A stretch of DNA of 47,096 nucleotides from Minwuia sp. (lineage in GTDB: Bacteria > Pseudomonadota > Alphaproteobacteria > Minwuiales > Minwuiaceae): positions 101,729-148,824 of the forward strand of contig JARGNO010000001.1 in the NCBI GenBank assembly GCA_029213165.1, given 5' to 3'. The position numbers were made by a program, and so were the translations under genes. Below are positions 10,361 to 12,969 of this stretch, piece after piece. The notes below the pieces were generated by a model. The model was not told the DNA's origin. It saw only the letters and a program-made list of their open reading frames with translations, and made no database searches. The stretch's first letter is position 1, and each line of letters begins with the position of its first letter.

Positions 10361-11272
10361 TCAGGTCTCGTGCAACCGCTCCTCGGCCGCCGCCGTGACT
10401 TCCATCAGCCAGGTCTCGAAGGCTTTCAGCCTCGGCCGATCCGCGCGACCTACCGGGTAGACCAGATAATAGCCGCTCCTCACCGCCAGATGGAAATCAA
10501 GCGGCTCGATCAGGGTACCGGCCTCCAGTTCCGGACGCACGAGACTGGGATTGACCGGCACGATACCAAGGCCCTGAATTGCACCCTGCACGGCGAGATT
10601 GGTGGTATCCAGCTTCAGCCCCCGGTCGGGATCGACCCCGGTTTCCCCAACCGCAGTCAGCCACTGTCGCCAGGTGTCGGGGCGGTTGACGTCATGCAGC
10701 AGCGGGTAATGCACCAGGTCGGCTGGCGTCTTCAGCTTCGGGCGCCCTTCCAGCAGGCTCGGGCTGCAGACGGGCACGATCTCCTCCCGCAGCAACAGCT
10801 TTGCCGTCAGCCCCTTCCAGTCGCCGACACCATAGCGGATAGCCGCATCCGCCTCCACGCGGCTGAAGTCGATGGCCTCCACATTGGTGGTCATCCGCAC
10901 CTCGATCTCCGGATGCCGCTTCTGGAAGGCGGACAGTTGCGGCACCAGCCAGCGCATGGCGAATGTCGGCAGCACATTGACAGTCAGTGAACCGGAACTG
11001 TCCTCGGCCTTCAGGGCCTCCGTCGCCTCGTTCATCTGATCGAACGCCTGCCGCAGTGTGGGGTAATAGCGTCCACCGGCGGCGGTCAGCATGACCTTGC
11101 GCTGCCGACGCTCGAACAGTTTCACACCCAGCAGGTCTTCCAGCCCCTTGATCTGGTGACTGATGGCGGACGGCGTCAGGTTCAGTTCATCGGCAGCGCG
11201 CGTGAAACTCAGGTGACGCGCCGCTGCCTCGAACACCCGCAGGGCGTTGAGCGGGGGCAGTCTTCTGGGCAT
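10361..11272 (-). CDS. LysR-family transcriptional regulator, GcvA-like
   Basis: 303 residues. The N-terminal winged helix-turn-helix (about 1-62) contains PPLNALRVFEAAARHLSFTR and ELNLTPSAISHQIKGLE, the pattern of the GcvA subgroup. The C-terminal two-lobed effector-binding domain follows, with MRWLVPQLSAFQKRHPEIEV. AGGAG lies 9 nt before the ATG at 11272. The gene is divergent from the first of two duplicated miniprotein genes. The 191-bp gap between them holds a palindrome in the usual LysR recognition position relative to the miniprotein promoter. An identical arrangement stands before the second copy, so this regulator is the best candidate activator of both. The effector molecule is unknown. 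Confidence 0.93.
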   Translation of the reverse strand: MPRRLPPLNALRVFEAAARHLSFTRAADELNLTPSAISHQIKGLEDLLGVKLFERRQRKVMLTAAGGRYYPTLRQAFDQMNEATEALKAEDSSGSLTVNVLPTFAMRWLVPQLSAFQKRHPEIEVRMTTNVEAIDFSRVEADAAIRYGVGDWKGLTAKLLLREEIVPVCSPSLLEGRPKLKTPADLVHYPLLHDVNRPDTWRQWLTAVGETGVDPDRGLKLDTTNLAVQGAIQGLGIVPVNPSLVRPELEAGTLIEPLDFHLAVRSGYYLVYPVGRADRPRLKAFETWLMEVTAAAEERLHET

Positions 11273-11329
11273 GACCGGCTCTCCTGAAAGGCTTGTGGTT
11301 CATGTTGCAGTGCATCAATTGCCAGAGCA

Positions 11330-11344
11330 ATGAATTAGATTCAT
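11330..11344 (+). promoter_or_regulatory. palindromic operator, unit 1 (candidate LysR site)
   Basis: ATGAAT-TAG-ATTCAT is a perfect 6-bp inverted repeat with a 3-bp centre. It lies 22 bp upstream of the promoter -35 element, about 60-70 bp before the inferred transcription start, where LysR activators normally bind. The same palindrome precedes the second miniprotein gene at the same distance. Confidence 0.6.
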
Positions 11345-11366
11345 CTATGTGATGAGAAATCATCCT

Positions 11367-11395
11367 TTGTCAAGCGTCAGCATCATTGACATATT
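11367..11395 (+). promoter_or_regulatory. promoter, unit 1
   Basis: TTGTCA (11367-11372), a 17-bp spacer and CATATT (11390-11395). The same two hexamers with the same spacer occur in unit 2. The -10 is weak, which fits an activator-dependent promoter. The predicted start, about 7 bp later, coincides with the first base of the pseudoknot. Confidence 0.55.
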
Positions 11396-11402
11396 CCAAT
11401 CA

Positions 11403-11445
11403 GTCAGACGTTGAGCGAGGGACGCCTGACCCGAAGCACCCTCGC
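11403..11445 (+). ncRNA. 5'-leader RNA element, predicted H-type pseudoknot, unit 1
   Basis: Four segments occur in the order A1-B1-A2-B2. A1 GTCAGACGT (11403-11411) pairs with A2 ACGCCTGAC (11422-11430): eight Watson-Crick pairs and one A-C mismatch. B1 GCGAGGG (11415-11421) pairs perfectly with B2 CCCTCGC (11439-11445). Loop lengths of 3, 0 and 8 nt suit an H-type pseudoknot with coaxially stacked stems. It begins at the inferred transcript 5' end and ends five bases before the AAGGAG ribosome site, so it could control translation. I do not recognise it as a known riboswitch. Confidence 0.6.
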
Positions 11446-11463
11446 TGAGCAAGGAGTATCAAG

Positions 11464-11655
11464 ATGCAGTACCAGCAGATCAACATCAATGATTTCAACG
11501 AACTGAAGCAGTCCAGCCCCGTTGATGCGGAGGCCCATGTCCTCGCCGCCATCGACCTGAACCAGATCGAGCAGCGTGCACATGCCGCCCGCGCCGCCGC
11601 TACCCTGGAAGGTATTGCCGGAATTCGCAGGGCTATGCTGCGTCTGTTCGCCTGA
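11464..11655 (+). CDS. 63-residue miniprotein, copy 1 of a tandem pair
   Basis: The ATG follows AAGGAG (11451-11456) at 7-nt spacing, a strong ribosome site. The protein starts MQYQQININDFNELKQ and ends with a basic helix, IAGIRRAMLRLFA; the middle (AHVLAAIDLNQIEQRAHAARAAATLEG) is predicted helical. It has no cysteines, signal peptide or membrane segment. The paralogue at 11955 shares the first dozen residues and the C-terminal pattern (I..IR.A...LFA), while the middle has diverged. Small helical proteins of this kind are common in Alphaproteobacteria, but I cannot assign a family. It is transcribed divergently from the LysR gene and probably controlled by it. A role as a small regulatory or stress protein is speculation. 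Confidence 0.75.
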   Translation: MQYQQININDFNELKQSSPVDAEAHVLAAIDLNQIEQRAHAARAAATLEGIAGIRRAMLRLFA

Positions 11656-11683
11656 CTCTACATCAACTTTTGATTAACGTTTT

Positions 11684-11717
11684 CGAACGCCGTCGCTTGG
11701 TATTGCGACGGCGTTCG
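11684..11717 (+). terminator. strong hairpin downstream of miniprotein copy 1
   Basis: A perfect 13-bp stem (CGAACGCCGTCGC at 11684-11696, GCGACGGCGTTCG at 11705-11717) with an 8-nt loop lies 28 bp after the stop. Only three T follow shortly after (11721-11723), so it is terminator-like rather than canonical. It separates the two transcription units. Confidence 0.6.
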
Positions 11718-11727
11718 GCGTTTATGC

Positions 11728-11749
11728 CGCAATGCAATATAGCATTGCG
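11728..11749. other. second hairpin between the duplicated units
   Basis: CGCAATGC (11728-11735) and GCATTGCG (11742-11749) form an 8-bp perfect stem with loop AATATA, 10 bp after the first hairpin. Role unknown; it may reinforce separation of the two units. Confidence 0.4.
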
Positions 11750-11819
11750 TTGAATGCATGGCCCGGAAGTCGGTTTGAAGCACTTCGCTCGCCCGCAGTG
11801 CTGCCGAATCCAGGATAAA

Positions 11820-11836
11820 GATGAATTTCATTCATC
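11820..11836 (+). promoter_or_regulatory. palindromic operator, unit 2 (candidate LysR site)
   Basis: GATGAAT-TTC-ATTCATC is a 7-bp inverted repeat. Its core ATGAAT...ATTCAT is identical to unit 1, and its distance to the promoter and pseudoknot is exactly the same as in unit 1. Confidence 0.6.
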
Positions 11837-11857
11837 TTTCTGGTGAGAAATGGTCTT

Positions 11858-11886
11858 TTGTCATTTTCGCATCGCCGCAACATATT
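11858..11886 (+). promoter_or_regulatory. promoter, unit 2
   Basis: TTGTCA (11858-11863), a 17-bp spacer and CATATT (11881-11886), identical hexamers and spacing to unit 1. The spacer sequence itself differs, so the elements appear to be conserved by selection. Confidence 0.55.
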
Positions 11887-11893
11887 GGTTTCA

Positions 11894-11936
11894 GTCAGAC
11901 GTCGGGCGAGGGACGCCTGACCCAACAGACCCTCGC
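11894..11936 (+). ncRNA. 5'-leader RNA element, predicted H-type pseudoknot, unit 2
   Basis: Same arrangement as unit 1: A1 11894-11902, B1 11906-11912, A2 11913-11921, B2 11930-11936. All four stem strands are identical to unit 1, whereas the 3-nt loop (CGG versus TGA) and the 8-nt loop (CCAACAGA versus CCGAAGCA) differ. Stem conservation with loop drift supports a structural role. Confidence 0.6.
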
Positions 11937-11954
11937 TGAAGATGGAGAGTTCAA

Positions 11955-12146
11955 ATGCAGTATCAGCAACTCAACCTCAATGAATTCAACGCAGTGAATC
12001 GCACGTCCGGCAGTGAGATGCACCTGCGCGAAGATGGCTCCATCGACATGGACTATTATATGGCACGCGCACAGAATGTCCGGGCAGCCGAAACGGCGAA
12101 GGGTCTGCTGGCGATCAGGAAAGCGCTCACGGCACTCTTTGCCTGA
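11955..12146 (+). CDS. 63-residue miniprotein, copy 2 of a tandem pair
   Basis: Paralogue of the gene at 11464 with the same length. It begins MQYQQLNLNEFNAVN and ends LLAIRKALTALFA, with a helical centre containing IDMDYYMARAQNVRAAETAK. GGAGA (11944-11948) precedes the ATG. Compared with copy 1, the N-terminal dozen residues and the C-terminal helix are conserved and the middle is not, so the two have probably specialised after duplication. It has no signal peptide, cysteine or membrane segment. It converges on the amidase gene that ends at 12187. Function unknown. Confidence 0.75.
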   Translation: MQYQQLNLNEFNAVNRTSGSEMHLREDGSIDMDYYMARAQNVRAAETAKGLLAIRKALTALFA

Positions 12147-12186
12147 AATGAAATCAACTGAATGGAGGATGGCCAGGCACTGCCGG

Positions 12187-12969
12187 TCAGCTTGTCATCA
12201 GCCTCTCGACGACGCCGATACGGGACACCGTGTCGGCGTCTGCCGTTCCGGTCACCTGATCCGGCAGGAAATGTTGCTGGAAAGCCGCAATGACCGATTG
12301 TGTCTCTTCGCCCGCGATGCCGTCGACCCGCAGCCCATAGCCGATCCGCGCAAGTGCCGCCTGTACCTGTCCAACATCCAACAGCTCCGGTGCGGTCGGC
12401 CCCGGCGCGGCGGGTGCGGCGGGTCCGGTCACGGACGACCAGAGACCGATCCCGGCACCCGCCAGACGCGCCCAGGGGAAATGCGCGCCCGGATCCTGCT
12501 TGCGCCGGGGCGCCACATCCGAATGCCCCAGGATGCGCCGGTCGGGTATGGTGTGACGGCGCCGGATATCCCGGACAAGGCCGACAAGCGCGGCGATCTG
12601 GGGCTCCGGATAGGCTTCCGGTCCATCCGGCCCGACGCTGGAATGTCCCCGGTTCTGCAACTCGATACCGATGGAACAGGCGTTGATGTCCGCCGCGCCG
12701 CACCATGAGGCAACACCGGCGTGCCAGGCGCGGCGATCCTCCGCGACCAGCGCATGAACCAGGCCATCGGATTCTATAAGGTAATGTGCCGAGACCCTGG
12801 TATCGGGATCGGTCAGCAGGCCGAGCGCCGTCGCCGCATCCGGTGTGTCGGTATAATGCAGCACCAGCATGTCGACAGCCGCGCCCTTGCGGTCATCATG
12901 ATTGGGGGACAGGTGGTCCCGGATGATCGTCAGCCCCTGATCTGCCGGCGCCAAGGGTGCAGGCGCCAT
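12187..12969 (-). CDS. N-acetylmuramoyl-L-alanine amidase (AmpD/AmiD type) with peptidoglycan-binding domain
   Basis: 260 residues. The amidase_2 domain (about 12-175) has zinc ligands H38 (VLHYT), H149 (GHSDVAP) and D159 (KQDPG), with K157 and E103 as likely catalytic residues. WHAG at 82-85 is also conserved. It cleaves the bond between MurNAc and the L-Ala stem peptide. A C-terminal peptidoglycan_binding_1 domain (about 190-255) contains VQAALARIGYGLRVDGIAGE. I see no clear signal peptide, so it may act in the cytoplasm on recycled anhydro-muropeptides, as AmpD does, although the extra binding domain is more usual in AmiD. Its ATG overlaps the stop of the DjlA-like gene (ATGA), so the two are cotranslated. 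Confidence 0.9.
   Translation of the reverse strand: MAPAPLAPADQGLTIIRDHLSPNHDDRKGAAVDMLVLHYTDTPDAATALGLLTDPDTRVSAHYLIESDGLVHALVAEDRRAWHAGVASWCGAADINACSIGIELQNRGHSSVGPDGPEAYPEPQIAALVGLVRDIRRRHTIPDRRILGHSDVAPRRKQDPGAHFPWARLAGAGIGLWSSVTGPAAPAAPGPTAPELLDVGQVQAALARIGYGLRVDGIAGEETQSVIAAFQQHFLPDQVTGTADADTVSRIGVVERLMTS

What the first reader, a model, noticed from the sequence alone, without database searches (positions are those of the whole stretch)
11403..11936. Duplicated 5'-leader RNA that folds as an H-type pseudoknot
Both miniprotein leaders contain four complementary segments in the order A1-B1-A2-B2, with stem strands identical in the two copies (11403-11445, 11894-11936). Stem A has 8 of 9 Watson-Crick pairs and stem B has 7 of 7. 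Loops of 3, 0 and 8 nt fit an H-type pseudoknot, and only the loops vary between copies. The element begins where transcription should start and ends close before the ribosome site, so it may be a translational switch or ligand-sensing RNA. I do not recognise it as a described riboswitch class.
Basis: partly seen in the sequence, partly recalled or inferred. Interest (0 to 1): 0.8.

Follow-up and report, generated by a model that had tools for sequence, protein, structure and literature searches.

The report
Pseudoknot leader on duplicated miniprotein mRNAs
Two neighbouring small genes of a Minwuia-type alphaproteobacterium begin their messenger RNA with the same small knotted RNA fold, which related species keep through paired mutations; it is a new, narrowly distributed RNA element that most likely guards the start of the message, and nothing found here suggests that it senses a chemical.

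Summary
Both leaders (11403-11445, 11894-11936) hold A1-B1-A2-B2 with identical stem strands and loops of 3, 0 and 8 nt. Nine leaders from five genomes of one genus (Minwuia) support it by covariation: 126 of 128 cells paired, 4 of 16 pairs changed on both sides, against 32-45% paired when partners are slid. Read on the other strand pairing is 91.4%, so the transcribed RNA is selected. The spacing to the promoter is fixed (CATATT-N5-CAG, 9 of 9), so the fold starts within about 2 nt of the expected transcription start. No Rfam family matches; apart from rejected hits, a covariance model found it only in this genus among 385 class and 398 phylum genomes. The 63-aa proteins are RSP_7527-type relatives of DUF1127 proteins beside a GcvA-type LysR gene. 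Ligand sensing is not supported: 1 of 12 unpaired core columns is invariant and the Shine-Dalgarno lies outside the fold. Most likely it is a 5'-terminal cap slowing 5'-end-dependent mRNA decay, perhaps also tuning initiation (0.45). The fold is well supported; the mechanism is inferred.

The parts
11403..11411 (+). copy 1, stem A 5' strand (A1)
   Evidence: pairs counted
11414..11421 (+). copy 1, stem B 5' strand (B1; 7-bp core 11415-11421 plus A11414)
11422..11430 (+). copy 1, stem A 3' strand (A2)
11431..11438 (+). copy 1, third loop (8 nt), variable between copies and species
11439..11446 (+). copy 1, stem B 3' strand (B2; core 11439-11445)
11453..11456 (+). copy 1, Shine-Dalgarno GGAG, outside the pseudoknot
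11464..11655 (+). miniprotein 1, 63 aa, RSP_7527-like (22.7 bits, below the curated cut-off of 26)
11367..11395 (+). copy 1 promoter-like TTGTCA-N17-CATATT
11354..11369 (+). copy 1, shared DNA motif GAGAAA-N3-TC-N-TTTG overlapping the -35 (candidate regulator site; function inferred)
11894..11902 (+). copy 2, stem A 5' strand (A1)
11905..11912 (+). copy 2, stem B 5' strand (B1; core 11906-11912)
11913..11921 (+). copy 2, stem A 3' strand (A2)
11922..11929 (+). copy 2, third loop (8 nt)
11930..11937 (+). copy 2, stem B 3' strand (B2; core 11930-11936)
11944..11947 (+). copy 2, Shine-Dalgarno GGAG
11955..12146 (+). miniprotein 2, 63 aa, RSP_7527 family (28.6 bits, cut-off 26)
11858..11886 (+). 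copy 2 promoter-like TTGTCA-N17-CATATT
11845..11860 (+). copy 2, shared DNA motif GAGAAA-N3-TC-N-TTTG
10361..11272 (-). divergent LysR-type regulator, GcvA subfamily (362.2 bits, cut-off 288)
11684..11717 (+). 13-bp hairpin after miniprotein 1 (possible terminator or 3' end of a UTR-derived RNA); the terminator scan, which asks for a T run, lists none here
   Evidence: read directly

Best explanation
Each miniprotein mRNA starts with a 5'-terminal H-type pseudoknot of about 45 nt. Shown here: two crossing stems kept by compensatory changes, on the transcribed strand, at a fixed distance from a promoter-like site, in nine leaders of one genus. Inferred: while the RNA is made, stem A (A1-A2) closes first with B1 in its loop, then B2 arrives and pairs with B1, and the two helices stack with no nucleotide between them. 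Because A1 begins at or within about 2 nt of the expected start, the 5' end is tied up in a helix. This would hinder RppH and RNase E, which rely on a single-stranded 5' end, and so lengthen the life of a short mRNA; the edge of the fold, 6 nt before the Shine-Dalgarno, may also set the initiation rate. When the gene is on would be decided by the promoter and perhaps the GcvA-type regulator, not by the RNA.
For: Covariation: 126 of 128 cells paired, 4 of 16 pairs with double changes, 0 of 500 shuffles reach the covariation score, slid controls 32.0-45.3% paired. Strand: the same structure read on the other strand has 91.4% paired. Constant spacing CATATT-N5-CAG in 9 of 9 pseudoknot leaders. 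Of 12 unpaired core columns one (A38) is invariant, of 32 paired columns 18, as expected for a mechanical rather than a ligand-binding part. [quoted passage not shown]
Against: No transcription start, half-life or probing data for this organism were found; the start is inferred from a 9-of-12 match. A plain hairpin would suffice to tie up a 5' end, so the cap idea does not explain why a pseudoknot is kept, nor why position 8.25 is not a standard pair in 9 of 9 rows (A.C six, C.U, C.A, G.G). Two further Minwuia leaders (L015, L016) have a stem B of other letters but only 3-4 bp of stem A. RppH loss affects only about 10% of E. coli mRNAs (PMC3997798, passage), so 5'-end-dependent decay is not general. 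Distantly related leaders (e.g. L023) show plain hairpins. The leader of RSP_7527 itself was not examined.
Confidence: 0.45

Rival explanations
1. Protein-bound leader: a protein (the miniprotein itself, an RNA chaperone or another regulator) recognises the pseudoknot and blocks or delays initiation, as in ribosomal-protein operators.
For: 18 of 32 paired columns are invariant, and a non-pair at 8.25 is kept in 9 of 9 rows although its letters change, which would suit protein recognition; the fold ends 6 nt before the Shine-Dalgarno.
Against: Both miniproteins are near neutral (pI 6.0 and 6.5), not basic; the invariant 5' strand is also the first transcribed DNA, which may conserve it without a protein.
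Confidence: 0.2
2. Metabolite-sensing riboswitch: ligand binding stabilises the pseudoknot and changes translation, as in the SAM-II or preQ1 classes.
For: Compact H-type fold next to a ribosome site; not in Rfam, so a new class is possible.
Against: Loops are variable (1 of 12 unpaired core columns invariant); the Shine-Dalgarno is not in the fold; the gene encodes a small protein of unknown function, not a transporter or enzyme; found in one genus only.
Confidence: 0.1
3. Two mutually exclusive hairpins (A or B) rather than one pseudoknot: the leader switches between them.
For: Covariation supports both helices but cannot show that they coexist; nested folding gives B. In the two divergent leaders L015 and L016 the nested ensemble pairs most of GGAG (unpaired 0.02-0.29), so some leaders may hide it.
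Against: Loops of 2-3, 0 and 8 nt allow both helices at once, and the estimated pseudoknot energy is about as low as the nested optimum (-21.2 against -20.3 and -18.9 kcal/mol for copies 1 and 2, crude model). For the five element-bearing leaders tested, GGAG stays partly to mostly open with or without the element tied up (lowest values 0.05 and 0.04 at the last G of G006_2, 0.13 at the first G of copy 2 in the nested case).
Confidence: 0.12
4. RNA thermometer that melts on heat stress, in line with heat induction of the Rhodobacter relative.
For: RSP_7527 RNA is induced at elevated temperature (PMC6238624, passage).
Against: The Shine-Dalgarno is outside the stems, and the nested fold is still at -13.6 and -11.7 kcal/mol at 55 deg C.
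Confidence: 0.05
5. A DNA-level operator, or a chance fold carried along by the gene duplication.
For: The two copies are sister sequences; energies this low occur in 211 of 31360 windows.
Against: Compensatory changes between species and G-U preference on the transcribed strand.
Confidence: 0.05

Closest known systems
5'-terminal stem-loops that stabilise bacterial mRNA (e.g. papA; ompA recalled)
   Same: structure at the very 5' end of the transcript (principle and references in PMC3997798, passages)
   Different: here a pseudoknot kept by covariation, not a simple hairpin; effect on half-life untested
H-type pseudoknot riboswitches SAM-II and preQ1 (fold recalled; SAM-II in Sinorhizobium: PMC9373788, search listing with start of abstract)
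   Same: small H-type pseudoknot in a bacterial leader
   Different: no match in Rfam at gathering and none spanning either element at E up to 5; variable loops; ribosome site outside the fold
Ribosomal-protein pseudoknot operators such as E. coli rpsO (recalled; PMC8470358 seen only as a search listing)
   Same: pseudoknot before the start codon
   Different: the gene is not a ribosomal-protein gene; in rpsO the ribosome site is part of the operator (recalled)
RSP_7527 / UdsC transcript of Rhodobacter sphaeroides (PMC6238624, PMC8625941, PMC9779115; passages)
   Same: small protein of the same NCBIfam family, short mRNA
   Different: there the promoter is called RpoHII-dependent and the studied RNA part is the 3' UTR sRNA UdsC; the word pseudoknot does not occur in PMC9779115; sigma factor here unknown
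VtlR/LsrB-type LysR regulators and their small-protein targets (PMC7486931, PMC12595884; passages)
   Same: a LysR regulator together with small DUF1127-type proteins
   Different: here the regulator gene is divergent and adjacent, Pfam finds no DUF1127 in the two miniproteins, and regulation is untested

Membership tests
Conserved H-type pseudoknot RNA | two crossing helices with loop lengths that allow both | tested here: met
   loops 2-3, 0, 8 nt in the window copies
Conserved H-type pseudoknot RNA | compensatory changes in both helices | tested here: met
   helix A 1 pair, helix B 3 pairs with double changes; 98.4% of cells paired in each
Conserved H-type pseudoknot RNA | both helices present in one molecule at once | not testable with these tools
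   needs probing
Rfam riboswitch classes | score above a curated family threshold | tested here: not met
   only a tRNA in the whole window; (11250-12200, E up to 5): four sub-threshold matches, none spanning either element, one (E 3.1) touching the first 7 nt of copy 1
Riboswitch (any) | conserved ligand-binding nucleotides in loops or junctions | tested here: not met
   1 of 12 unpaired core columns invariant in 9 rows; stems could still bind something
Riboswitch (any) | ligand-dependent change of expression | not testable with these tools
   bench test
5'-terminal mRNA stabiliser | structure begins within a few nt of the transcript start | tested here: inconclusive
   start only predicted; spacing to the -10 constant in 9 of 9
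5'-terminal mRNA stabiliser | longer mRNA half-life | not testable with these tools
   bench test
RSP_7527 small-protein family (NF046098) | score above 26 bits | tested here: inconclusive
   met by protein 2 (28.6), not met by protein 1 (22.7)
DUF1127 (PF06568) | Pfam match | tested here: not met
   none in either protein at E up to 10; relatives at L062, L075 and L077 carry it behind a similar N-terminal segment

The most novel reading that the evidence does not exclude
A pseudoknot, not a hairpin, as a built-in 5' cap is a recurring architecture of this LysR-miniprotein divergon: in a second alphaproteobacterial family (f66) leaders with unrelated letters can also form A1-B1-A2-B2 near the expected start (L070/L073, L072, perhaps L071), so that layout and position would be selected while the sequence is replaced.
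Probability: 0.2. Interest if true: 0.65.

Novelty: new member of a known kind. Interest (0 to 1): 0.45.

Why it matters
It adds an RNA element, supported by covariation and matched by no Rfam family, to a group of tiny proteins (RSP_7527/DUF1127 relatives) whose roles are little understood, and gives a natural test case of whether a 5'-terminal pseudoknot protects bacterial mRNA and why a pseudoknot would be kept where a hairpin could do.

Tried and rejected
Third own-genome match of the A1-B1 pattern (L001): chance; the second half of the element is missing and the protein search finds only the two window copies. Covariance-model hit in G169 (L035, E 2.6e-4): stretched to 83 nt and lying in what reads as coding sequence; rejected. 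Phylum-level hits in 5 of 398 genomes at E 0.0025-0.047: about 20 would be expected by chance at E 0.05 per genome; looked at, the best pseudoknot score among them is -12.7 (window copies -21.2) and only one of the five holds both GTCAG and CTGAC; rejected. Rfam matches at E 0.3-3.1: none spans an element. DnaB_bind match of protein 1 (E 0.02, below cut-off): ignored. RNA thermometer: see rivals. Pseudoknot in leaders L074, L079, L080 and L023: hairpins are clear, but the crossing helix is weak, of other topology or long-range (0, 10, 21 and 7 of 100 shuffles reach the score). Viral contigs: 0 matches to one exact pattern of the element. Plasmid, phage and E. coli collections and metagenomes were not searched.

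Rows dropped before the main count: of 11 Minwuia leaders, L015 and L016 were left out of alignment A3 because stem A is not evident; two of the nine rows kept (window copy 1 and G008_1) are identical and counted once. In the energy test 17 leaders were used; L011 (core identical to copy 1), L073 (near-identical to L070), L075, L076, L077, L078, L081-L084 and the further NF046098 relatives, whose upstream sequences were printed, were not tested.

Full report
What is there. The window lies in a 4.12 Mb genome (G000). Four genomes that the genome search puts in the same genus have the same contig places as named records: Minwuia thermotolerans DHS20C03, Minwuia sp., Kordiimonadales bacterium IMCC3096 and an uncultured alphaproteobacterial MAG, so I call the window Minwuia-like (Minwuiales; inference). 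Two 63-aa ORFs, 11464-11655 and 11955-12146, stand in tandem between a divergent GcvA-type LysR gene (362.2 bits, cut-off 288) and a convergent amidase-like gene (best NCBIfam hit AmpD, 107 bits, below its cut-off).

Chance. Under a simple stacking model with fixed loop penalties that I wrote for the purpose, the pseudoknot energy of copy 1 is met by 0 of 3000 and that of copy 2 by 1 of 3000 dinucleotide shuffles; but 211 of 31360 windows of 58 nt on both strands of the 47-kb window reach it too. Single-sequence folding is therefore weak evidence in this GC-rich DNA.

Relatives. A protein search found the gene in 7 of 9 genomes of the family, all seven of the window's genus. Their 11 leaders fall in two groups. 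Nine (window 1 and 2, L011/L028, L012/L029, L013/L030, L014/L031, L017, L018, L019; five genomes) carry the element. Two (L015, L016; proteins 35 and 31% identical to miniprotein 1, GTG starts) carry a 7-bp stem B of other letters and at most 3-4 bp of stem A; 1 and 2 of 100 shuffles reach their pseudoknot score. A different genus of the family (L023) has two plain hairpins instead.

Covariation. In the nine-row alignment A3 (8 distinct rows), 126 of 128 cells form standard pairs. Pairs 11-22 (U-A to C-G), 14-46 (A-U to G-C), 16-44 (C-G to U-A) and 20-40 (G-C to A-U) change on both sides; the covariation score is not reached by any of 500 shuffles; sliding the partners drops pairing to 32.0-45.3%. 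One measure, the number of further pair types, is not above the shuffles (218 of 500), and the shuffles ignore relatedness within this one genus. Nine cells are G-U on the transcribed strand; counted on the other strand the same structure has 91.4% paired. This points to the transcribed RNA, not to a DNA palindrome or an antisense RNA. Both helices are supported; whether they coexist covariation cannot tell. Position 8.25 inside stem A is not a standard pair in any of the nine rows, 18 of 32 paired columns and 1 of 12 unpaired core columns are invariant. In G005 (L014/L031) stem A has 7 of 9 pairs, and the energy model prefers another stem A there.

Position. TTGTCA-N17-CATATT is the only + strand promoter-like match listed in 11200-12300 for each copy, and CATATT-N5-CAG is constant in 9 of 9 element-bearing leaders (read). 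With the usual 6-7 nt from the -10 to the start (general knowledge), transcription begins at about 11402-11403 and 11893-11894, at or next to A1. The Shine-Dalgarno GGAG follows the extended B2 after 6 nt. In the nested ensemble its four bases are unpaired with probability 0.32-0.97 in copy 1 and 0.13-0.83 in copy 2; in L015 and L016 they are mostly paired (0.02-0.29), and open to 0.52-0.99 if the element is tied up.

Distribution. No Rfam family matches. A covariance model of the element with stem B (R1) finds it in 3 of 385 class genomes, all of this genus (G000, G004, G005), besides one rejected hit, and not in G003 of the same genus (stricter filters; G006 and G008, which carry the element, are not listed and were presumably not drawn). 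At phylum level it finds the window's genome and low-scoring hits in 5 others of 398, rejected on inspection. The model needs similar letters, so unrelated sequences of the same shape would be missed.

Gene context. Protein 2 passes the RSP_7527 family cut-off, protein 1 does not. In 29 of 385 class genomes a member passes E 1e-5. Some relatives carry a similar N-terminal segment followed by a DUF1127 domain (L062, L075, L077), so the miniproteins look like DUF1127-type proteins without that segment (inference). In a script over 19 loci of this gene in three families a DNA motif GAGAAA-N3-TC-N-TTTG stands upstream in 18 of 19 (3 of these, L023, L077 and L080, in a looser form; none in L074), and a LysR helix-turn-helix motif on the opposite strand was found in 14 of 19 (narrow pattern; in L070 and L073 the near copy looks degenerate and a second copy lies further upstream). 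LysR regulators of the VtlR type activate small DUF1127-type proteins in other Alphaproteobacteria (PMC7486931, PMC12595884, passages). The Rhodobacter relative RSP_7527 is called RpoHII-dependent (PMC9779115, PMC8625941, passages) and its mRNA is described as degraded by 5'-end-dependent RNase E action (PMC6238624, passage).

Mechanism. A fold locked to the expected start site, free loops, a ribosome site outside the fold, and a gene family whose mRNA in one studied species decays from the 5' end make a protective 5' cap the most economical reading. It is an inference; I found no expression data. A protein-recognition role is the main rival because of conserved stem letters and the preserved non-pair.

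Lead beyond the genus. In family f66 the leaders L070/L073 and L072 can form GGACAT/ATGTC(C or T) crossed by GCCG(T or C)/GCGGC (0 of 100 shuffles for L070 and 1 of 100 for L072 reach the score; L073 not scored), and for L071 the program prefers a different layout (5 of 100). By eye they begin close to where the start would be expected, but the -10 boxes there are unclear. With three distinct sequences this is not covariation evidence; it is a lead.

Literature. DUF1127 with pseudoknot gave one paper, a cysteine database, unrelated by title; the search for pseudoknot, riboswitch and RNA-motif terms with Alphaproteobacteria listed five papers, none on this gene by title and start of abstract; nine papers name Minwuia, none on leader RNA by title. 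The library holds open-licence papers only.

Noticed in passing
window 11354-11369 and 11845-11860; L011-L016, L023, L070-L073, L075, L077-L081: A DNA motif GAGAAA-N3-TC-N-TTTG overlapping the -35 stands upstream of this gene in 18 of 19 loci examined in three families, often beside a divergent GcvA-type LysR gene: candidate operator of a conserved regulator-miniprotein divergon.
   Followed up: partly
window 11684-11717: 13-bp hairpin after miniprotein 1; in Rhodobacter the 3' UTR of the related mRNA is cut into the sRNA UdsC.
   Followed up: no
window 11351-11364 and about 11821-11839: AT-rich palindromes (GATGAGAAATCATC; GATGAATTTCATTCATC) before the promoters, of a kind regulators may bind.
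   Followed up: no
L062, L075, L077: Relatives join the RSP_7527-type segment to a DUF1127 domain, so the miniproteins may be DUF1127-type proteins without the C-terminal segment.
   Followed up: partly
L070, L071, L072, L073 leaders: Possible second pseudoknot of unrelated sequence at the same place in another family.
   Followed up: partly
window 11408/11425 and 11899/11916 (A3 columns 8 and 25): One position inside stem A is not a standard pair in any of the nine leaders although its letters change.
   Followed up: partly
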